Source: Bradyrhizobium cosmicum
Lineage (GTDB): Bacteria; Pseudomonadota; Alphaproteobacteria; Rhizobiales; Xanthobacteraceae
Assembly (NCBI RefSeq): GCF_007290395.2
Contig: NZ_CP041656.2
Coordinates: 5,766,001 to 5,830,000 of the forward strand
Reading direction: 5' to 3'
Length of the DNA stretch: 64,000 nt
Made by a program: the position numbers and the translations under genes. Below, one piece after another: positions 1-10,456 of this stretch. The number at the start of each line of letters is the position of its first letter. The first letter of the stretch is position 1. The notes below the pieces were generated by a model. That model was not told where the DNA came from and made no database searches. It saw only the letters and a list, made by a program, of their open reading frames with translations.

Positions 1-1869
1 GACCTCGGCGAGGATCATTTCGTCCCGATCGATCCGCTCGCGACCAACCAGATCGAAGTGGTGCGCGGCCCGGCTGCGCTGCGCTACGGCTCGACCTCGA
101 TCGGCGGCGTCGTCAGCGCCACCAACAACCGGATTCCGGACGCGCTGCCTGCTTGCGCACCGTCGTTCCAGGCTTACGGCCTGCCGGCCAAGGCCCCGCT
201 CGCTGCGGCCGCGACGTCGCCCTGCGTGACGGCCGAGACGCGCACCGCGTTCTCTTCGGTCGATCGCGGCGTCGAGAGCGGCGTGCTGCTCGACACCGGC
301 GGCGGCAATTTTGCGTTCCATGCCGACGTCTACGGGCGCACGACCTCGGACTATTCGATTCCGAGCTATCCCTACCTGAACGACCAGACGCGATCGGTGA
401 ACGGGCGCCAGCCGAACTCGGCGACACGCTCGGACGGCGCCTCGATCGGCGGCTCCTACTTCTTCCAGGGTGGCTATATCGGCGCGTCGATCACGCAAAA
501 CGATGCGCTCTACCACATCCCCGGCATCGACGGCGCCGACCACAACACGCGGATCGACGGCCACCAGACCAAGATCAACGTCAAGGGCGAGTATCATCCC
601 GACGCCGCCGCGATCGACACCGTGCGCTTCTGGGCCGGCGCGACCGACTACCGGCACAACGAGATCGGGCTTGCCGATCCCGCCGATCCCACCAGCGACG
701 GCGTGCGGCAGACCTTCACCAACAAGGAGCAGGAGATCCGCACCGAGGTGCAACTGATGCCGTTCAACGCGCGCTTCGCCGAGGTGACGACGGCGCTCGG
801 CTTCCAGGTCGGACATCAGGAGCTGAGCGCGCCGAGCCCGGACAATCCCGGCACGCTGTTCAATGGGCTGTGGGACCCCAACAACAGCACGCGCGTTGCG
901 GCTTACGCCTTCAACGAGTTCAAGTTCACCGAGCAAACGAAGGCGCAGATCGCCGGCCGCATCGAGCATGTCGAGCTGCACGGCACGACGCCGAACTTCC
1001 CGGCGGATTATCTGCCCGACGGCACGCCGCAGGTGGGAATCGCACGCAATCCGTCGTTCACGCCGAAGAGCGGCAGCATCGGCCTGTTGCAGGATTTGCC
1101 GGGCGGCATGGTCGGCAGCATCACCGCGCAATATGTCGAGCGCGCGCCGAAGGCGGCCGAGCTGTTTTCCCGCGGCGGCCATGATGCGACTGCGACCTTC
1201 GATATCGGCAATCCCAACCTCACCATCGAGACCGCCAAGTCGGTCGAGCTCGGCGTGCGCAGGGCGACGGGGCCGTTCCGGTTCGAGGCGACCGTCTACT
1301 ACACGCATTTCGACAACTTCATCTATCGCCGGCTCACCGGCGTGATGTGCGATGACGACTTCGCTTCGTGCGGTACGCCGGGCGCCGAACTGAACCAGGC
1401 GGTCTATTCGCAACGCAACGCCAACTTCCGCGGCGGCGAATTCCAGTCGCAACTCGATGTCGGTGCGTTCCAGGGCGGCATCTGGGGCATCGAGAACCAG
1501 CTGGACATGGTCCGCGCCACCTTCACCGACGGCACCAACGTGCCGCGCATTCCGCCGCTGCGGATGGGCGGCGGCGTGTTCTGGCGCGACGACAACTGGC
1601 TGATGCGCGTCAATTTGTTGCACGCCTTCGCCCAGAACAATGTCGCCGTGATCGCGGAGACGCCGACACCGGGCTACAATCTGTTGAAGGCCGAGGTCAG
1701 CTACAAGACCAGGCTCGATCGCAACTGGTTCGGCGCGCGCGAGATGACGGCAGGCATCGTCGGCAACAACCTGCTCAACGAAAACATCCGCAACTCGGTG
1801 TCCTACACCAAGGACGAGGTGTTGATGCCAGGCATCGGCGTGCGGGCGTTTGCGAACTTCAAGTTCTAG
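1..1869 (+). CDS. TonB-dependent outer-membrane receptor, C-terminal part (5' end outside window)
   Basis: The frame is open from base 1, so the gene starts upstream; about 622 residues are present. The first residues are the end of a plug domain (IEVVRGPAALRYGSTSIGG), followed by a 22-strand-type barrel ending in phenylalanine (ANFKF), as outer-membrane proteins do. The segment with ERAPKAAELFSRGGHDAT and IGNPNLTIETAKSVELG resembles the ZnuD-like branch of receptors, which import zinc or haem; that substrate is inference. Two cysteine pairs lie in predicted outside loops. It should import a metal or siderophore using TonB energy. It stops 37 bases before the first copy of the putative LysR operator and need not belong to that cluster. 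Confidence 0.92.
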   Translation, partial: DLGEDHFVPIDPLATNQIEVVRGPAALRYGSTSIGGVVSATNNRIPDALPACAPSFQAYGLPAKAPLAAAATSPCVTAETRTAFSSVDRGVESGVLLDTGGGNFAFHADVYGRTTSDYSIPSYPYLNDQTRSVNGRQPNSATRSDGASIGGSYFFQGGYIGASITQNDALYHIPGIDGADHNTRIDGHQTKINVKGEYHPDAAAIDTVRFWAGATDYRHNEIGLADPADPTSDGVRQTFTNKEQEIRTEVQLMPFNARFAEVTTALGFQVGHQELSAPSPDNPGTLFNGLWDPNNSTRVAAYAFNEFKFTEQTKAQIAGRIEHVELHGTTPNFPADYLPDGTPQVGIARNPSFTPKSGSIGLLQDLPGGMVGSITAQYVERAPKAAELFSRGGHDATATFDIGNPNLTIETAKSVELGVRRATGPFRFEATVYYTHFDNFIYRRLTGVMCDDDFASCGTPGAELNQAVYSQRNANFRGGEFQSQLDVGAFQGGIWGIENQLDMVRATFTDGTNVPRIPPLRMGGGVFWRDDNWLMRVNLLHAFAQNNVAVIAETPTPGYNLLKAEVSYKTRLDRNWFGAREMTAGIVGNNLLNENIRNSVSYTKDEVLMPGIGVRAFANFKF

Positions 1870-1906
1870 GTTGCTCGAGCCGGGGCCCAAAGGGTCCCGG
1901 CACAGC

Positions 1907-1952
1907 CGTTGCCTCATCGGCAACAATCAGGTGCCAAGAATGATCTTGTGAG
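1907..1952 (+). promoter_or_regulatory. putative LysR operator, copy 1
   Basis: CGTTGC, 5 unmatched bases, CGGCAACAAT, 8 mostly unmatched bases, then AAGAATGATCTTGTGAG. The first part is an inverted repeat TTGC-N7-GCAA, the classical T-N11-A LysR box; the second is an inverted repeat CAAGA-N4-TCTTG. The same two blocks with identical spacing recur at 5795-5840 (33 of 46 positions match). The layout fits a recognition site plus an activation site just upstream of the promoter of the CnbZ-like/RidA/SDR genes. Confidence 0.7.
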
Positions 1953-2037
1953 ATCCGGCCCGCCTCTTCACTCTCGCCGGCGGTGTGAGCACCCTGTTGC
2001 GTTGCTCGCGATGCAGACCTCGAATGGCGAGTGGGCA

Positions 2038-2790
2038 ATGACAGAGCTGGGATCGTTCCGCGCGGGATCGTATCAATTCATTCCCGGCGTGTTCCAGTAT
2101 TCCGCCGGGGTGAAGCCCGACGATGGATTCGAGATCGTCCGCGCTCGATTCCGGCGTCCACTGGCTCTCTCAGAGGGATTTTCCGCTGCGGCTGATCATT
2201 TGAAGTCGGTCAATCGCGGCGTCCAGGCGTTCTGTTCCTGCGAGCTGAGGTCGCCGGCGCCTTTCACCGAGCAGGGTTTCCTCGACTTCAACAAGGAATA
2301 TGTCGGCTGGCTCGACAGATGGGGGCTGACGAAGGATGGCATCAATCCGGTCGCACGCACCAACGTGTGCCCCGAGGTCGATCCTCCGAAGACGGTGAGC
2401 ATGTATGCCTTCTGCTATACGCGCCCGACATCGTCGAAAGACGGCGGTGGTTTTGTCGTCGCGGGCAGCGGCGAGGCCCCGGAGGGCAAGGCGAGCTACC
2501 GGGATTTCGCAATCAGGCCCGGGGACCAGTCGACCGAGGGCATGCTCGAGAAATGCCGCTTTGTGCTCGGCGAGATGGAACGGCGCATGAGCGCGCTGGG
2601 CGCAGGATGGGTAGATGCGACCGGCGCGCATGTTTACACCGCATACGAACTTCAGGCATTGATGAAGCGCGAGATCGCCCCGCGCGGGGCCGCGGCGAAC
2701 GGCCTCAGCTGGCATTTCGCAAGGCCGCCCGTGCAAGGCCTCGATTACGAGATGGACGTTCGTGGCGTCTCCGCGGAGGTCGTGATCTGA
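2038..2790 (+). CDS. CnbZ-like aminomuconate deaminase family protein (RidA-like)
   Basis: A 250-residue protein. Its sequence (FIPGVFQYSAGV near the start, FCSCELRSPAPFTE, NPVARTNVCPE, GSGEAPEGKASYRD, LSWHFARPPVQGLDYEMD at the end) matches my memory of proteins annotated as 2-amino-5-chloromuconate deaminase CnbZ. Such enzymes hydrolyse enamine/imine products of aromatic-amine degradation; the real substrate here is unknown. The frame is open from 1909, but that start would lie inside the operator at 1907-1952, so I use the ATG at 2038; ATG 2011 is the alternative. It is followed after 26 bases by a RidA-family gene and then an SDR gene, apparently as one operon. Confidence 0.7.
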   Translation: MTELGSFRAGSYQFIPGVFQYSAGVKPDDGFEIVRARFRRPLALSEGFSAAADHLKSVNRGVQAFCSCELRSPAPFTEQGFLDFNKEYVGWLDRWGLTKDGINPVARTNVCPEVDPPKTVSMYAFCYTRPTSSKDGGGFVVAGSGEAPEGKASYRDFAIRPGDQSTEGMLEKCRFVLGEMERRMSALGAGWVDATGAHVYTAYELQALMKREIAPRGAAANGLSWHFARPPVQGLDYEMDVRGVSAEVVI

Positions 2791-2816
2791 CGAGTTTCTC
2801 CTGAAGGTCGACGCAC

Positions 2817-3959
2817 ATGCCCCGTGAAGTCATCTACACCGATCAATTGATGCGCCCGATCGCGCATTTCTCGCATGCCTCGCGCATCGACAATCTGATC
2901 CACGTGGGCGCATCGGCGGGTGTCTTTCCGGATCTGCGCCTCGCCGGCGAGGCTCCGGGCCAGGTCGACATGGAGGCGCAGACGCGCCGCATGTTCGCCA
3001 ATCTGAAGACGACCCTTGACCTGCTCGGGGGACAAATGTCGGATGTCGTTCGGCTCAAGGCCTACGTTGCCGACACCAGGGATATCCCAAAGTATCTCGC
3101 TATCTATGCCGAGGAGTTCCCGGGCTTGCGGCCGGCGCACAGCGTGGTCGGCTCCTGGGATTTTCCGCTGCCGCAGGCGGCCGTGGAAATCGACACCACC
3201 GCGATCGTCGGCGGCCAAGCCCGCGCGACACCGGCGGGCGCCATGGTCGCGGGAGAGTGGCACCACGCCACCGCGCTGCCCATCGGCAGCAATGGCGGCG
3301 CCGACCGGCAGGTCGCGGCCACCTTGCAGAACCTCAAAACGATGCTCGAGGATGCGGGCTTTGGCCTTGGCGATGTCTGCAATCTCCACGTCACCATCGC
3401 GGACATTCGCGACTACGACCTCGTCGTGGACGCGTGCACGCGGTTCTTCGGCGACCGCTTCCCGACATGGACCGTGGTCGGCGCTCCGCTCGAACGGCCG
3501 GAGTTTTGCATCGGCATTGAGTCGGTGGCCATCAAGGGTGGCGGACAGGTGATTTCGAGCGAACTCTCGCCTCATCTGCCCGGACGCCCCGCGCCGGCCA
3601 TGCTGGCGGGCGATACGCTGTTCCTGAGCGGACAGGGCACGCCTGACGATGCCGATCTGAGCGCGGAGCAACAGGCGAGAGCGATCTGGAAGCGGCTTCA
3701 TGCGCTGATCGAGGCCGCCGGTTTTCCGAAGGACTCGCTGCTGCGCACCAACAACGTGCTGACCGACTGGCGCGACTTCCAAGGCTTCAACCGCGGTTAC
3801 GGCCCCAACGTGGCCAAACCCTATGTGCCCCGGGCGACGGTAGTCGGTGCCCTCCCCGACCGGCGCGCGCGGGTGCAGACCGAAGGGATCGCCCATCGCA
3901 ACGGAAGTCATTCGAAGATCGTGCAAGTCGCGCCGCTGGTCGAACAGACCGGTGCCTGA
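2817..3959 (+). CDS. RidA/YjgF family protein with three tandem domains
   Basis: 380 residues containing three RidA-type repeats at about 1-135, 140-245 and 255-370. RidA enzymes hydrolyse reactive enamines and imines to ketones plus ammonia, using an arginine in a P-x-R-S-x-V type motif. Domain 1 has PAHSVVG, domain 2 has PTWTVVG and domain 3 has VPRATVVG, so only the third repeat keeps an arginine at that position. Ordinary RidA is one domain of about 130 residues that forms a trimer, so this looks like a trimer fused into one chain with a single surviving site. It lies between the CnbZ-like gene and the SDR gene (15 bases to the latter). Confidence 0.85.
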   Translation: MPREVIYTDQLMRPIAHFSHASRIDNLIHVGASAGVFPDLRLAGEAPGQVDMEAQTRRMFANLKTTLDLLGGQMSDVVRLKAYVADTRDIPKYLAIYAEEFPGLRPAHSVVGSWDFPLPQAAVEIDTTAIVGGQARATPAGAMVAGEWHHATALPIGSNGGADRQVAATLQNLKTMLEDAGFGLGDVCNLHVTIADIRDYDLVVDACTRFFGDRFPTWTVVGAPLERPEFCIGIESVAIKGGGQVISSELSPHLPGRPAPAMLAGDTLFLSGQGTPDDADLSAEQQARAIWKRLHALIEAAGFPKDSLLRTNNVLTDWRDFQGFNRGYGPNVAKPYVPRATVVGALPDRRARVQTEGIAHRNGSHSKIVQVAPLVEQTGA

Positions 3960-3974
3960 GCGTCAGGAAGGATC

Positions 3975-4718
3975 ATGGAACGTTTTCGCGGAAAGGTCGT
4001 CCTCGTCACCGGCGGCACGCGCGGGATCGGCGCGGGCCTCGTCGGCGCGTTCCTGAAAGAAGGGGCGGCAGTCGGCTTCTCCGGCACGAGCGAGGCCGGC
4101 ATTGCCGAGGCTTTGGTGAAGTTCGGCGCTCCTGAAGCAACCTGCGGCATCGTTGCCGATCTCGCGCATCCGGATGCCGGCCCGGACCTCGTGCAGGCGG
4201 TGTTCGATCGTTTCGGCCGGATCGACGTCGTGATCAACAACGCGGGCGTCGGCAGCATCCTGAACGAGTGGGAGATCACGCCCGCGGAATGGGATCGCGT
4301 TCACGCCGTCAATTTGCGCGCCACGTTCTTCGTGGCCCAGCACGCCGCGCGGTCGATGCGCGACAATGGCGGCGGAAGCATCATCAACGTGTCGTCGATT
4401 GCCGGACAACATGGCGGAGTCGCCGGCAGCCCGGCCTACGCCTCGTCCAAGGCCGCCGTGATCGGCCTGACCAAGTCGCTGGCGCGGCGCTTCGCGCCCC
4501 ATGGCATCCGCGTCAATTGCATCGCGCCCGCCGACATAGAAACCGACATGACCGCCGGCTGGCCGGCCGCGTTGCGCGACAGGCTGAATGCCATGACGCC
4601 GCTCGGCCGGTTCGGAACGACAGACGAGGTCAACGGCGCGGCGCTGTTCCTGGCCTCAAGCGAAGCAAGCTTCATCACCGGACAGACGCTGGCGATCAAC
4701 GGCGGCGCCTACATGTAA
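3975..4718 (+). CDS. short-chain dehydrogenase/reductase
   Basis: 247 residues, the usual classical SDR length. It has the nucleotide-binding motif TGGTRGIG near residue 13, the NNAGV motif, and the catalytic Ser...Tyr-x3-Lys set (NVSSIAG, then YASSKAAV). It ends with the common ITGQTLAINGG segment. It probably oxidises or reduces a keto/hydroxy intermediate of the pathway shared with the two upstream deaminase-like genes. A Shine-Dalgarno (AGGAAGG) lies 4 bases before the ATG. Its stop codon abuts that of the convergent LysR gene with no spacer. The substrate cannot be told from sequence. Confidence 0.9.
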   Translation: MERFRGKVVLVTGGTRGIGAGLVGAFLKEGAAVGFSGTSEAGIAEALVKFGAPEATCGIVADLAHPDAGPDLVQAVFDRFGRIDVVINNAGVGSILNEWEITPAEWDRVHAVNLRATFFVAQHAARSMRDNGGGSIINVSSIAGQHGGVAGSPAYASSKAAVIGLTKSLARRFAPHGIRVNCIAPADIETDMTAGWPAALRDRLNAMTPLGRFGTTDEVNGAALFLASSEASFITGQTLAINGGAYM

Positions 4719-5639
4719 TTAGTGCGGTCGATCCGACGCCGAAGCACGATCGGCTTCCACCTTCAGCATGTCAACGAACGCACTGACCGCCAGAGGCAGC
4801 CGCCTGCCGGCCATGACGCAGACGTCGTGCGATGCGCGCTGGAAGGAGTCCTCGACAATCGGAATGCTGACGAGAGCGCAGCTTTCGAGCTCCTGCAGGG
4901 TCGGCAATGTCGGCAGGAAGGTGACGCCGCCGCCGTAGCGGGCGAAGCCCTTCAAGGCCGCGATGGAATTGGTTTCCAGCGTCGGCGACAAATGCAGCCG
5001 TCTTGCGCTGACGGCGGAGTCGATCAGCCGGCGAATCCCGAAGGTCTTTTCCGGTACGGCCAAGGTGTGGCCGACCACTTCCGACAGGTCGAGCGACGGC
5101 GCCCGCGCAAGCGGATGGCCTGGCGCCACCACGGCACAGAGCGGGTCGTGAATGTGCGCGGCGAAGCTCAGGAGCTCGTCGGCCTCCGCATTGAAGACGA
5201 GGCCGATGTCGCCGGTGCCGTCGTGCAGGCTGCGCGTGATGGCGGAGGTGCCGGCGACCTCGAGCTCGTAAGTGATGCCCGGAAACCGCTTGTGAAACGA
5301 AACGACAGTCCGGGTCAGCAAATAGTCGACGAGTCCCTCGTTCGCCATGATGCGAATATGGCCGCGCTGCAGACCGCGCAGCGAGTCGATCTCGCCGCGC
5401 AGCCGCTCGACATCCAGCAGGAAATTGCGGGAGAAGCGCGCCAGCGTGTCAGCCGCTTCGGTCGGGGCCACGCCGCGCGGCAGCCGCTCGAACAGCGGCA
5501 CACCGACCATCTGCTCCAGCCGCGAGATCTGCCTGCTGACGGCCGAGGGCGCGACATTCAGGGAGGACGATGCGTGCCGTATCGACTTCAGCCGATACAC
5601 CTCCCGGAAATAGCGGATGAGCGTTGACTCAAGCTGCAA
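4719..5639 (-). CDS. LysR family transcriptional regulator
   Basis: An N-terminal winged helix-turn-helix (LNVAPSAVSRQISRLEQMVGVPLFER) is followed by a periplasmic-binding-like effector domain. The frame is open to a TTG at 5690, but a TTG at 5639 has a perfect GGAGG 8 bases upstream and gives 306 residues, the normal length for the family, so I use it. The gene is convergent with the SDR gene and divergent from the DUF3830 gene. The two copies of a LysR-type operator at 1907-1952 and 5795-5840 flank its gene set, so it most likely controls both blocks in response to a pathway intermediate. Confidence 0.9.
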   Translation of the reverse strand: MQLESTLIRYFREVYRLKSIRHASSSLNVAPSAVSRQISRLEQMVGVPLFERLPRGVAPTEAADTLARFSRNFLLDVERLRGEIDSLRGLQRGHIRIMANEGLVDYLLTRTVVSFHKRFPGITYELEVAGTSAITRSLHDGTGDIGLVFNAEADELLSFAAHIHDPLCAVVAPGHPLARAPSLDLSEVVGHTLAVPEKTFGIRRLIDSAVSARRLHLSPTLETNSIAALKGFARYGGGVTFLPTLPTLQELESCALVSIPIVEDSFQRASHDVCVMAGRRLPLAVSAFVDMLKVEADRASASDRPH

Positions 5640-5794
5640 GAGAGTTGCCTCCAGGGAAACATTATCAGTGAAAGACGACAATGCGGGCAACCCAAAAATC
5701 GCCGCTACCGGAACGCAGCCGATAAAAACCTAATGTCTGCAGTTATTTCGAGCACTCTGGAAGTCCTCAGGGCAGCAATTGCCCGCGGCATGTG

Positions 5795-5840
5795 CGTTGC
5801 GCAGGCGGCAACAATGCATTCGTAAGATTGATCTTGTGAG
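5795..5840 (+). promoter_or_regulatory. putative LysR operator, copy 2
   Basis: CGTTGC, 5 unmatched bases, CGGCAACAAT, 8 unmatched bases, AAGATTGATCTTGTGAG. It contains TTGC-N7-GCAA (T-N11-A type) and AAGAT-TG-ATCTT. It lies between the LysR gene and the DUF3830 gene, in the same orientation as copy 1, 56 bases before the DUF3830 start. A separate GGGCA-N5-TGCCC repeat is at 5770-5784. Confidence 0.7.
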
Positions 5841-5896
5841 TACGGTTCATTGCGAGAGACTGGCTCCCATCGATCGTATGGGGAGCGCCAACGGGA

Positions 5897-6334
5897 ATGC
5901 CCAAGCTATTATTCAGTTTTGCCCGCGGGGGCAGCTTCACGGCGAACGTGATGGCCGACAAGGCTCCCAAGACCTGGGCGACGCTGCGCGCCCACCTCCC
6001 CGTCACCGTCAAGGCCTACAACGCGCGTTGGACGGGGCGGGAGACCCACATCAAGCTCGACGTGCCCAACAAGCCGCCGCGCGAGAACCAGATCCTCAAC
6101 GCGGGGCTCGGGGACGTCATCTACGCGTGCGAGTGGTCCGATCGCGACGTAACCGGCTTCGAGGCCATCGGCTGGTTCTACGGGACCGAGACGGTGCGCG
6201 ACTGGCGCGGCGAGTCGCGCGTCAACCTTTTCGCCCGCGTCAATCAGAGCCAGTGGCCGTTCCTGGAGGAAGTGGGCCTGCGCACGTGGCGCGAGGGCGG
6301 TGAAGATTGCACGGTCACCGTCGTCGAGGACTAG
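5897..6334 (+). CDS. DUF3830 family protein
   Basis: 145 residues with no signal peptide or membrane segment. The pattern (FARGGSFTANVMADKAPKTW near the start, ETHIKLDVPN, NAGLGDVIYACEW, LFARVN) matches DUF3830, a small cyclophilin-like fold found beside transport and amidase genes in proteobacteria; no activity is established to my knowledge. It is the first gene after operator copy 2 and is followed after 78 bases by a solute-binding protein, so it probably belongs to the LysR-controlled set. Confidence 0.75.
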   Translation: MPKLLFSFARGGSFTANVMADKAPKTWATLRAHLPVTVKAYNARWTGRETHIKLDVPNKPPRENQILNAGLGDVIYACEWSDRDVTGFEAIGWFYGTETVRDWRGESRVNLFARVNQSQWPFLEEVGLRTWREGGEDCTVTVVED

Positions 6335-6412: not shown

Positions 6413-8059
6413 ATGAGTTCCCGTCGCACCATTTCCGTCCTCGCCGCCATGGCGGTCACGCTTGCCACGTCGACGTCGGCTTTTGCACAGGGCAAGACTC
6501 TCCGGATCGGAATGACGGCCAGCGACATTCCGAAGACTCATGGCCAGCCGGACCAGGCCTTCGAGGGCAACCGCCTGACCGGCCTCACGATGTACGACGC
6601 CCTCACCGCCTGGGACTACAAGACCGGCACCAAGATCATGCCGGTTCTCGCCACCGAATGGGCGGTGAGCCCGGACGACAAGACGAAATGGACCTTCAAG
6701 CTGCGGTCCGACGTGACGTTCAAGGACGGTTCTCCCTTCAACGCCGACGCCGTGGTGTGGAACGTCCAGAAGGTTCTGGACAAGACCGCGCAGCAATTCG
6801 ACCAGAGCCAGGTCGGCTGGACCGTTCCGCGCATGCCGACGCTGCGATCCGCTCGCAAGATCGACGACACGACGGTCGAATTCACGACCTCGGAGCCGGA
6901 CTCCTTCCTGCCGCTCAACCTCGCCAATCTGTTCATGGCCTCGCCTGCGCATTGGCGCGCCAAGCTGGCCGCGGTGCCGGCTGAGGTCACCGACCCGGCG
7001 CAGCGCTCTGCAAAAGCCTGGGAGCAATTTGCCAAGGATCCGTCAGGCACCGGCGCGTTCACCCTCGCACGCTTCGTGCCGCGGGAACGGCTCGAGCTCG
7101 TCCGCAATGACAAATATTGGGACAAGAGCCGCGTGCCCAAGATCGATCGCATCGTCATGATCCCGCTGCCGGACGTCACGTCGCGGACGGCTGCGCTGCT
7201 CGCCGGCCAAGTCGATTTCGTGGAAGCACCGGCACCTGATGCCGTGGCGTCGATCCGCGCCCGCGGCTTCAACATCGCGACCAGCCAAAGCGCTCATGTG
7301 TGGCCCTGGCAGCCATCCCTGCTGCCCGGTTCGCCCTGGCAGGACAAGCGCGTGCGGCAGGCGGCCAATCTCTGTATCGATCGCAACGATCTTGTCGCGC
7401 TGAACGGCGGCATTGCGGAGCCGGCGCTCGGCATGATGCGCAGCGGACATCCCTGGTTCGGCAAGCCGACCTTCAAGCTGCGCTACGATCCCGACGAAGG
7501 CCGCCGTCTCATGAAGGACGCCGGCTATTCGGACGGCAAGCTCGCAACCGTCAAGGTCATCACGGCGATCTCCGGTTCTGCGATGATGCAGCCGCTGCCG
7601 ATGAACGAGCTGATCCAGGAAGCGTTCCGGAAGTGCTACATCGACGTCAAGATCGAGGTTCTCGAATGGGGCACGCTGTTCACGAACTGGCGTGAAGGTC
7701 CGACGGCCGCCTCTGCGCGCGGCGCCAACACGACCAACGTGTCGATCGCGACCATCGATCCGTTCTTCGCGCTGGCGCGCTTTGCGGATTCACGCATGGC
7801 GCCCCCGGTGTCGAACAATTGGGGCTCCATCAACGATCCGGAACTGGATCGTCTGTCCAGAGCCGCACGGACGACGTTCGAGCCCGAGGCGCGCGATCTT
7901 GCTCTCTCGAAGGTGCATGAACGGCTCGTGGACGAAGCCATGTTCATCTTCTTCGTGCACGAGGTCGCACCAAGAGTGCTGTCGCCTCGCATCACCGGCT
8001 TCTCGGCGCCCAATGGCTATTACATCGACTGGGCGGCACTGGACATGAAGCCGGAATAG
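6413..8059 (+). CDS. ABC transporter substrate-binding protein, family 5 (peptide/opine type)
   Basis: 548 residues with a signal peptide (residues 1 to about 25, ending TSAFAQG). The body has the family-5 order: TLRIGM, an LATEWAVSPDDKTKWTFKLR segment, FKDGSPFNADAVVWN, and the C-terminal GYYIDW. Such proteins capture peptides, opines or other amide compounds in the periplasm. GGAG lies 8 bases before the ATG. No permease or ATPase gene follows, so it is an orphan here and must use components encoded elsewhere. It follows the DUF3830 gene and is probably co-regulated with the RidA cluster. Confidence 0.9.
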   Translation: MSSRRTISVLAAMAVTLATSTSAFAQGKTLRIGMTASDIPKTHGQPDQAFEGNRLTGLTMYDALTAWDYKTGTKIMPVLATEWAVSPDDKTKWTFKLRSDVTFKDGSPFNADAVVWNVQKVLDKTAQQFDQSQVGWTVPRMPTLRSARKIDDTTVEFTTSEPDSFLPLNLANLFMASPAHWRAKLAAVPAEVTDPAQRSAKAWEQFAKDPSGTGAFTLARFVPRERLELVRNDKYWDKSRVPKIDRIVMIPLPDVTSRTAALLAGQVDFVEAPAPDAVASIRARGFNIATSQSAHVWPWQPSLLPGSPWQDKRVRQAANLCIDRNDLVALNGGIAEPALGMMRSGHPWFGKPTFKLRYDPDEGRRLMKDAGYSDGKLATVKVITAISGSAMMQPLPMNELIQEAFRKCYIDVKIEVLEWGTLFTNWREGPTAASARGANTTNVSIATIDPFFALARFADSRMAPPVSNNWGSINDPELDRLSRAARTTFEPEARDLALSKVHERLVDEAMFIFFVHEVAPRVLSPRITGFSAPNGYYIDWAALDMKPE

Positions 8060-8666: not shown

Positions 8667-9185
8667 CTAGCCTGCCCGCGCCTTGCTCCAGTCGGGTCCG
8701 ACCGGTCCCGATACGCCTGCGAAGGCGCCGTCGACCAGCTCGAACACCAGGATGCGGGCGGCATCGACCGGGCCCGGCATGGTGATGCGGCCCTTGTCGA
8801 CCCGCTTGAAGCCGACGCGGCTGTAATAGGGCTCGTCGCCGACCAGCAGCACGAGGCGGTGCCCCTTTTCCCTGGCGTCCTTCAGCGCGCGCTCCAGCAA
8901 CAGACGGCCGACGCCGCGGCTGCGGAACGGCGGCTCGACGGTGAGCGGCCCGAGCATCAGCGCCGGCGTCTCGCCGATCAGGATCGGCAATTGCCTGACC
9001 GAGCCGACCAGCAGCGTGCCGATATGCGCCGTGAAGGACAATTCGAGCAGATGGTCGACATGCTCGCGGATACGGTAGGCGCTGAGCACGAAGCGGCCGG
9101 GGCCGAAGGTACGTTCGTGCAGCCGTTCGATCGCCTGGGCGTCGCCGGCGGCTTCGGGATGGATGGTGAGCGAGAGATCGGTCAT
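8667..9185 (-). CDS. GNAT family N-acetyltransferase (YhbS-like)
   Basis: 172 residues: MLGPLTVEPPFRSRGVGRLL is the acetyl-CoA loop and VLLVGDEPYYSRVGFKRV the C-terminal YxRxGF part seen in YhbS-type acetyltransferases. Its ATG overlaps the stop of the upstream membrane-protein gene by four bases (ATGA), so the two should be translationally coupled. Substrate unknown. Confidence 0.87.
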   Translation of the reverse strand: MTDLSLTIHPEAAGDAQAIERLHERTFGPGRFVLSAYRIREHVDHLLELSFTAHIGTLLVGSVRQLPILIGETPALMLGPLTVEPPFRSRGVGRLLLERALKDAREKGHRLVLLVGDEPYYSRVGFKRVDKGRITMPGPVDAARILVFELVDGAFAGVSGPVGPDWSKARAG

Positions 9186-10354
9186 GTTGACCGGCGGGAT
9201 AACATCTCGGCGGGCCGTGGTCCACCGGGCTCTTGCGCGATCGACCCCTGTGACATGCCGCGGGTAAAGACGACCGTGAACAGCAGCGTCCAGAGCGTCA
9301 GCATCAGGATGGGAGTGATGTAATACGGCGTGAAGACGGGATGCGTGGCAAAGAAACCGAGATTCAGCACGAGATTGCCGGCGACCAGCAGCGCGAGTTT
9401 CCTGACTCCAGCATGGCCTGCGAAACGCCACAACAGCGCGGTCCAGACACAGGCGATCACGATCAACGGGAATTGCGTGTCGCCGAGATAGGCCCGCAGC
9501 ACGGCAGGATCGAGGCTCCGCGGAGCCGTATCCTGGCCGCCATAGGCCGAGACCAGCGGGTTACCCGAATTGACAAGGTTGGCCGCGAACACCGGCAACA
9601 GACCGACGAGGAACGCAACGCCGAGCGTCAGACCCGACACGAAAGCCTCGCGGCTGCGCCAGATCAGGAACGACAGCCCGAAGAACAGGAAATAGCCGGC
9701 CGACAGAACCACGTTCGCGATCCTGAAGCTCGCGGACAGGCCGAGCAGAAGGCCGACGGCCGCGACCGCGAGCAGGCGGCGCCGGCCGTCATCGACGAAC
9801 AGCCTCGCGGTGAACAGGCCCGCCAGCACGCACACGACCATGGTCGGCGCGATCGAATAGCTCGCCTTGGCCGGGTTGATCATGAAGTAGATCGACAGCA
9901 CGCCCAACATTGCGGCCGCCGTCAACGACACCGGCTCCCGCGCCCGCCACAGACCGTACAGCGCAAAACCGGCGACGATCATGTTCGCCAGCGCATACAG
10001 CGGAATGACCTGGAATCCCTCCGGGAAAAGCGCCAGCGCGAAGCCCGTGCCCGGCGGCGGTGTCATCACCCATTTGCTGCCGTCGGCGGTCTGGGTGTGG
10101 CAAGGCGCGCGCGTCGGATCGGGCCAGTTCGGAAAATCGATGCTGCGCAACTTGCCCGCGAGATAGCCGTCGGTTTCACGGGCGAGGCTGGTGTCGAGCC
10201 CTTGCCATCCGAACCGCTGGAACAGATGCGCTTGCCTGAGATAACAGATGTCGTCATAGACGCCGCGGCTCTCGCTCCAATGCGAGATCAGCCTGACGTT
10301 GCTGGCCAGAATTGCCAGAAACACAATTGAAAAAAATACTTTGACAGCTCTCAT
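9182..10354 (-). CDS. multi-pass membrane protein, possible lipid-linked sugar transferase
   Basis: 390 residues from ATG 10354 (the frame extends to 10429). About ten hydrophobic segments, with a soluble stretch at about 40-100 containing the acidic VYDDICYLRQAHLFQ near the first loop. That layout recalls GT-C type transferases, in which an acidic motif after the first helix is catalytic, but there is no clear family signature. It is divergent from a GT2 glycosyltransferase gene 102 bases away, which supports a role in cell-surface glycans. Treat as hypothetical. Confidence 0.75.
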   Translation of the reverse strand: MRAVKVFFSIVFLAILASNVRLISHWSESRGVYDDICYLRQAHLFQRFGWQGLDTSLARETDGYLAGKLRSIDFPNWPDPTRAPCHTQTADGSKWVMTPPPGTGFALALFPEGFQVIPLYALANMIVAGFALYGLWRAREPVSLTAAAMLGVLSIYFMINPAKASYSIAPTMVVCVLAGLFTARLFVDDGRRRLLAVAAVGLLLGLSASFRIANVVLSAGYFLFFGLSFLIWRSREAFVSGLTLGVAFLVGLLPVFAANLVNSGNPLVSAYGGQDTAPRSLDPAVLRAYLGDTQFPLIVIACVWTALLWRFAGHAGVRKLALLVAGNLVLNLGFFATHPVFTPYYITPILMLTLWTLLFTVVFTRGMSQGSIAQEPGGPRPAEMLSRRST

Positions 10355-10456
10355 GGGCTCTCGCCGGGCCTGCCGGCCTAGCCTGGAAATGGTTCGCCTG
10401 TACAGGAAAAGCACCGGCAAGTATAGCAAGGTGGGGATTTTGGAGGTGAAGCGGCC

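What the first reader, a model, noticed from the sequence alone, without database searches (positions are those of the whole stretch)
1907..1952. A two-part LysR-type operator occurs twice with identical spacing around one catabolic gene set
Seen: CGTTGC-N5-CGGCAACAAT-N8-AAGAWTGATCTTGTGAG at 1907-1952 and 5795-5840; 33 of 46 bases match and all mismatches but one fall in the two spacers. Known: LysR regulators bind T-N11-A inverted repeats (TTGC-N7-GCAA here) plus a second activation site. Inference: the LysR encoded between the copies controls CnbZ-like/RidA/SDR and DUF3830/SBP as one regulon.
Basis: partly seen in the sequence, partly recalled or inferred. Interest (0 to 1): 0.72.

Follow-up and report, generated by a model that had tools for sequence, protein, structure and literature searches.

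The report
Paired LysR operator flanking its regulator
A soil bacterium carries two copies of the same two-part switch, one before each of two neighbouring gene groups, and comparison with other bacteria indicates that the switch belongs to the regulator gene lying between them: a well-supported but ordinary kind of control circuit around genes whose substrate is unknown.

Summary
CGTTGC-N5-CGGCAACAAT-N8-AAGAWTGATCTTGTGAG lies at 1907-1952 and 5795-5840 (33 of 46 bases equal; 0 of 2000 resamples reach 33), with no third copy in the 7.27 Mb genome at up to 3 mismatches. Among 265 genus genomes the motif (up to 3 mismatches) occurs in the same 2 that have a full close LysR. The second, G541, also has one copy before each gene group. 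A third, G031, keeps a more diverged copy but only a truncated LysR. A matrix from five Bradyrhizobium copies scores 15 bits or more in 24 of 88 regions upstream of more distant LysR relatives, against 0 of 88 on the other strand and 5 of 5154 control scans. CTTGT follows RTTGC-N7-GCAAY at exactly 20 bases in 27 of 33 cases. Binding is not shown and the inducer is unknown. New member of a known kind.

The parts
1907..1924 (+). Copy 1, first half: palindrome GTTGC-N7-GCAAC (T-N11-A), proposed recognition site
1936..1952 (+). Copy 1, second half: AAGAATGATCTTGTGAG, proposed activation site overlapping the -35 region
2038..2790 (+). CnbZ-like protein (250 aa); predicted Rid/chorismatase-like fold
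   Evidence: NF049982 360.5 bits, cut-off 220; model pLDDT 82.4, fold matches
2817..3959 (+). Three tandem Rid domains in one chain (380 aa, 3x-Rid type)
   Evidence: PF01042, 3 stretches; each third passes the Pfam cut-off on its own
3975..4718 (+). Short-chain dehydrogenase/reductase (247 aa)
   Evidence: PF13561, PF00106
4719..5690 (-). LysR-type regulator, HTH_1 + LysR_substrate; true start probably near 5639 (inference: the closest homologues are 306 aa)
5795..5812 (+). Copy 2, first half: palindrome GTTGC-N7-GCAAC
5824..5840 (+). Copy 2, second half: AAGATTGATCTTGTGAG
5897..6334 (+). DUF3830 protein (145 aa)
   Evidence: PF12903
6413..8059 (+). Family 5 extracellular solute-binding protein (548 aa)
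   Evidence: PF00496

Best explanation
The two 46-bp elements are the cognate operators of the LysR-type regulator encoded between them (4719-5690, minus strand). Each has a strong T-N11-A palindrome (recognition site) and then a second block, ATTGATCTTGT or nearly so, whose CTTGT starts 20 bases after the palindrome (activation half overlapping the -35 region). A LysR tetramer would sit on both halves and, with its inducer, activate the CnbZ-like/3x-Rid/SDR operon from copy 1 and the DUF3830/SBP operon from copy 2. At copy 2, about 156 bp from the likely lysR start, it may also control its own gene. Shown here: the sequence, its rarity, its co-occurrence with the LysR, its position and the fixed spacing. 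Inferred: binding, tetramer, activation, autoregulation and inducer.
For: Exact copies, far from chance. Only two sites in the genome at up to 3 mismatches. In 265 genus genomes a LysR match at E<=1e-75 and the motif at <=3 mismatches occur in the same 2. In 391 genomes drawn from the family, the 23-position pattern at <=2 mismatches occurs in the own genome only. G541 repeats the two-copy, two-operon layout. Matrix from 5 Bradyrhizobium copies: >=15 bits in 24 of 88 LysR-divergent regions, 0 of 88 reverse complement, 0 of 88 mirror image, 5 of 5154 control scans; 2 of those 5 (L010, L013) lie just before periplasmic-binding-protein genes about 4 kb from a LysR relative. CTTGT offset is 20 in 27 of 33 cases, 25 of the 27 within 400 bp upstream of lysR on the opposite strand. 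With separate half matrices the window's spacing is commonest (15 of 31; next 3). Over 40 sites, weak -10-like columns (T63, A64, G66, T68) lie 16 bases after positions 41-46 (TTGTGR), which would put the palindrome centre near -65.
Against: No binding or expression data. G031 has a CnbZ-side copy (0 mismatches to the 23-position pattern; outside the limit of the stricter genus-wide pattern) but a LysR with only the HTH domain. 64 of 88 distant LysR-divergent regions score under 15 bits. Five loci with 44-47% orthologues (L008, L009, L013, L014, L075; L009 and L075 are near-duplicates) carry a TTC-N9-GAA palindrome at lysR instead, with the same 20-base gap. With the 23-position pattern at <=3 mismatches, 6 of 16 genomes chosen for having LysR relatives have no match, and four matches at 3 mismatches (two in G011, two in G549) are away from the LysR loci and look like chance. 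Neither window copy is followed by a convincing -10. G541's first copy was seen before the genus-wide pattern was written. 16 of the 27 loci with the 20-base offset are Variovorax, so they are not independent. The control pieces are mostly coding, not promoter, DNA.
Confidence: 0.9

Rival explanations
1. The element belongs to another DNA-binding protein (a paralogous LysR or a wider regulator) that happens to serve these two promoters.
For: The genome holds many LysR-like candidates (65 in the first look, 8 scored). G031 keeps a copy although its LysR is truncated. In Reyranella soli (G549) two further matches at 3 mismatches lie elsewhere (L141, L145); L141 may be a paralogue's site.
Against: A regulator with other targets should have other sites; at up to 3 mismatches there are none in G000 and no match in the 263 genus genomes other than G000 and G541 (G031's copy is more diverged). 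The motif sits beside relatives of this LysR in distant genera.
Confidence: 0.06
2. The similarity reflects a duplicated promoter or dispersed repeat without regulatory meaning.
For: 33 of 46 identity between two places 3.9 kb apart.
Against: Flanks do not align, spacers diverged while blocks did not, no further copies, and blocks and spacing recur in distant relatives.
Confidence: 0.02
3. The LysR binds both copies but mainly represses, or only copy 2 (the divergent, autoregulatory one) matters in the cell. (A variant of the best explanation, not exclusive with it.)
For: The sequence cannot tell activation from repression; in most relatives' loci with a site, only the lysR-divergent one was seen.
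Against: The second half overlaps a -35-like position and is strongly conserved; G541 also has both copies.
Confidence: 0.15

Closest known systems
LysR-type transcriptional regulator operators (recognition + activation site), e.g. GcvA IR1/IR2
   Same: Palindrome near -65 (here inferred) with a second site nearer the promoter; PMC5002191 (passages seen) gives GcvA inverted-repeat centres at -65 and -43.
   Different: Half-site is GTTGC/GCAAC, not the CTATA-N9-TATAG consensus of that paper; distance between the two half-centres is about 25 bp, not 22.
CatR/ClcR-type operators of aromatic catabolism
   Same: Divergent lysR beside catabolic genes and a motif conforming to T-N11-A (PMC6449761, passages seen).
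   Different: Their consensus is AkACC-N5-GGTAT; none of the seven window proteins scanned at this locus matched a ring-cleavage family.
CnbZ, 2-amino-5-chloromuconate deaminase (NCBIfam NF049982)
   Same: 360.5 bits against a cut-off of 220.
   Different: Substrate not shown here; the neighbours scanned in the window and relatives are Rid, SDR, DUF3830, transporter parts and, in Reyranella, an FAA-hydrolase-family protein.
3x-RidA proteins (three fused Rid domains)
   Same: Three Rid domains in one 380-aa chain, as described in PMC4433059 (passages seen).
   Different: Assignment to the RidA subfamily not tested.

Membership tests
LysR-type regulator (protein 4719-5690) | N-terminal HTH_1 and C-terminal LysR_substrate domains | tested here: met
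   PF00126 71.4 bits, PF03466 137.4 bits, both above cut-off
LysR-type operator | T-N11-A inverted repeat | tested here: met
   GTTGC-N7-GCAAC in both copies
LysR-type operator | Site between lysR and a divergent target gene | tested here: met
   Copy 2; 24 of 88 relatives' lysR-divergent regions score >=15 bits, only in the orientation away from lysR
LysR-type operator | Second (activation) site near -35, recognition site near -65 | tested here: inconclusive
   Fixed 20-base gap and weak -10-like columns in 40 sites, but no mapped start site and no clear -10 in the window
LysR-type operator | Bound by and responsive to the LysR and an inducer | not testable with these tools
   needs protein and cells
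CnbZ (NF049982) | Score above the curated cut-off | tested here: met
   360.5 against 220 bits
CnbZ (NF049982) | Deaminates 2-amino-5-chloromuconate | not testable with these tools
   enzyme assay needed
3x-RidA | Three Rid domains in one chain | tested here: met
   66.0, 38.0 and 39.2 bits against cut-off 27.3 for the three thirds
3x-RidA | Domains belong to the RidA subfamily (not Rid1-Rid7) | not tested
   no subfamily assignment was made

The most novel reading that the evidence does not exclude
A LysR subfamily spread over alpha-, beta- and gammaproteobacteria (classes recalled from the organism names) keeps an operator of fixed geometry (palindrome, 20 bases, CTTGT, about 19 bases, -10) while its regulated transporter is exchanged (SBP5, Liv-type ABC, TRAP, tricarboxylate-type). 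In the CnbZ-bearing branch it governs an undescribed pathway in which two Rid-fold proteins, a chorismatase-like CnbZ and a one-chain triple Rid, deaminate an imported amino-muconate-like or other enamine compound.
Probability: 0.3. Interest if true: 0.5.

Novelty: new member of a known kind. Interest (0 to 1): 0.35.

Why it matters
It gives a concrete, testable regulator-operator pair and a predicted regulon (two transcription units, two sites in the genome) for genes with no shown substrate: CnbZ-like, 3x-Rid, SDR, DUF3830. The operator can be used to find the same pathway in other genomes and to build an inducer screen that would identify the substrate.

Tried and rejected
Dispersed repeat: rejected, two copies only. 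Recent duplication: rejected, flanks do not align. Chance: rejected. The sigma-70 scan of 1800-6000 found no promoter at either copy; its one hit is on the minus strand at 5690-5661, about what shuffles give (mean 0.5, sd 0.7). The first regular expressions had a gap one or more bases off and printed nothing; they were repeated with the right gap. The second part was sound and was recounted by script.

Literature: searches for LysR with TTGCC/GGCAA or ATTGCC/GGCAAT (15 of 101 and 10 of 10 papers listed, listings only) and for LysR recognition/activation sites (one listed, listing only) showed no title or abstract start evidently about this operator. Searches for CnbZ or 2-aminomuconate deaminase (20 of 23 listed) and for DUF3830 or 2-amino-5-chloromuconate (2 papers) showed none on this gene set. 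One search (12 listed) gave the footprinting paper PMC5002191; (10 of 28 listed) was for fused Rid proteins. The library holds open-licence papers only, and listings are not full texts, so this is no proof of absence.

PDB sequence search with the CnbZ-like protein found nothing; with the LysR it found 10 distinct LysR-type sequences, best E 6e-20. The closest LysR relatives by sequence other than the own record (P0002 94%, P0003 88%, P0004 90%, and P0018 Bradyrhizobium sediminis 73%) were not read as DNA: the one genome-contig scan did not return them and no metagenome scan was available.

Full report
Observation. The two 46-base elements are at 1907-1952 and 5795-5840 on the + strand, 33 of 46 bases equal, with all mismatches but one in the two spacers. 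Resampling of the two intergenic stretches gave at most 29 (0 of 2000 reached 33). A 28-position pattern with up to 3 mismatches has two matches in the window and the same two in the whole genome of 7,271,215 bases, none with the pattern read backwards. The flanks do not align.

Gene setting. Copy 1 lies between a TonB-dependent receptor gene (end 1869) and a row of a CnbZ-like gene (2038-2790), a gene for three tandem Rid domains (2817-3959) and an SDR gene (3975-4718). A LysR gene runs the other way (4719-5690). Copy 2 lies between lysR and DUF3830 (5897-6334), followed by a family 5 solute-binding protein gene (6413-8059). The closest LysR homologues are 306 aa, so the true start is probably near 5639; this is inference. 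Of the six further ORFs scanned up to 12240, none matched a transporter permease or ATPase family (one of the six, 9182-10429, matched nothing).

Does the motif follow the LysR? In the 265 genomes of the genus that searched, a LysR match at E<=1e-75 occurs in 2 (G000 and G541, the latter 70% identical); 8 candidates per genome were scored in full. The motif with up to 3 mismatches (30 fixed positions) occurs in the same 2 and in none of the other 263. G541's first copy was known before this pattern was written, so the test is not blind to it. In an earlier draw of 146 genus genomes at E<=1e-60, 4 had a match: the own genome, a partial 76% match in G031, and matches of 42% and 40% in G011 and G014. 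In 391 genomes drawn from the family, the 23-position pattern with up to 2 mismatches occurs in the own genome only; G541 and G031 are not among the rows of that draw. A profile search of the family draw at E<=1e-85 matched 33 of 391; most are more distant relatives.

Close relatives. One (L118:9110, minus) precedes genes for a periplasmic binding protein, Liv-type permeases and ATPases, and DUF3830. The other (L118:15960, minus; 26 of 31 positions) precedes TRAP transporter, CnbZ-like, Rid and SDR genes. So the two-group layout recurs with other transporters. G031 has one site (26 of 31 positions) before its TRAP-CnbZ-Rid genes, but its LysR shows only the HTH domain; this speaks against a strict link, or shows recent decay. 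That copy is too diverged for the pattern.

Whole genomes of relatives. I searched 16 genomes chosen for having LysR relatives with the 23-position pattern at up to 3 mismatches: 10 have a match, 6 do not (G014, G554, G555, G556, G558, G559); the pattern read backwards has 0 in all 16. Of 15 matches, 10 have 0-1 mismatch, in G000, G541, G031 and the five genomes of loci L010, L011, L012, L013 and L015. The one in L011's genome is on a stretch (L131) whose neighbours I did not annotate. Of the five with 3 mismatches, one is L007's lysR-divergent site and four (G011, G549) lie elsewhere and may be chance.

Distant relatives. The genome-contig scan with a LysR alignment gave 80 loci, chosen by LysR similarity only (301 candidates confirmed, best 80 kept). 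Iterated matrix scans first showed the motif upstream of lysR in Reyranella, Arsenicitalea, Sneathiella, Variovorax, Halomonas/Vreelandella and others. For a held-out test I built the matrix from five Bradyrhizobium copies only (2 window, 2 G541, 1 G031) and scored the stretch upstream of lysR in the other loci, with G541, G031 and known duplicates left out. Of 109 regions, 88 non-redundant ones were kept: 24 reach 15 bits in the orientation away from lysR, 0 in the reverse complement, 0 in the mirror image; of 5154 control scans (370-base pieces of the same loci, both strands, mostly coding) 5 reach it. Two of those 5, in L010 and L013, lie just before periplasmic-binding-protein genes. 64 of 88 do not reach 15 bits. 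The motif had already been seen in some of these loci, so the choice of test was not blind, although the matrix held none of their sites.

Spacing. In loci L007-L086 (80 loci, 1.25 Mb), RTTGC-N7-GCAAY has 158 matches counted on both strands; 33 are followed within 60 bases by CTTGT, at an offset of exactly 20 in 27; the other six offsets occur once each. Of the 27, 25 lie within 400 bp upstream of lysR on the opposite strand; the two others are the L010 and L013 sites about 4 kb away. 16 of the 27 loci are Variovorax. With separate matrices for the two halves, the window's spacing is commonest (15 of 31 regions with a strong first half; next 3). At lysR in L008, L009, L013, L014 and L075 a TTC-N9-GAA palindrome stands instead, with the same 20-base gap to CTTG; L015 has both kinds.

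Mechanism. Over 40 sites (50 at 15 bits or more, 40 after removing those 80% alike) further conserved columns appear at positions 63-68 of the element (T, A, G, T at 63, 64, 66, 68; 0.40-0.63 bits), 16 bases after positions 41-46, TTGTGR. The Variovorax sites contribute much of this, and a few of the 40 look like chance matches. If this is the -10, the start would lie near position 75, the palindrome centre near -65 and the second half at -35, the layout I recall as classical for LysR-activated promoters; GcvA's repeats are at -65 and -43 (PMC5002191, passages). The window copies show no clear -10.

Verdict. The circuit is a typical LysR operator pair; I saw no description of this operator or regulon in the search listings, which are not full texts.

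Noticed in passing
window 2038-2790: The CnbZ-like protein has no Pfam match at E<=0.001 but its predicted fold resembles chorismatases and Rid proteins, which may place the CnbZ family in the Rid superfamily.
   Followed up: partly
window 2817-3959: Three tandem Rid domains in one chain, a presumed one-chain trimer.
   Followed up: partly
L119:9605-10333: In G031 the LysR orthologue shows only the HTH domain while an operator copy stands before the TRAP-CnbZ-Rid genes.
   Followed up: partly
L008:2803, L009:7928, L013:7939, L014:7932, L075:7928: Orthologous LysR genes carry a TTC-N9-GAA palindrome with the same 20-base gap to the second half: possible co-evolution of operator and regulator.
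   Followed up: no
L042, L058, L064, L080, L037: Variovorax and Cupriavidus relatives have motif-like sites on both sides of lysR, facing outwards, in the iterated scan; those in L042 precede a tricarboxylate-type binding protein and an FAD-dependent oxidoreductase.
   Followed up: partly
window 6413-8059: The solute-binding protein gene stands without transporter permease or ATPase families among the six following ORFs scanned, unlike in G541, where DUF3830 lies with a Liv-type ABC transporter.
   Followed up: partly
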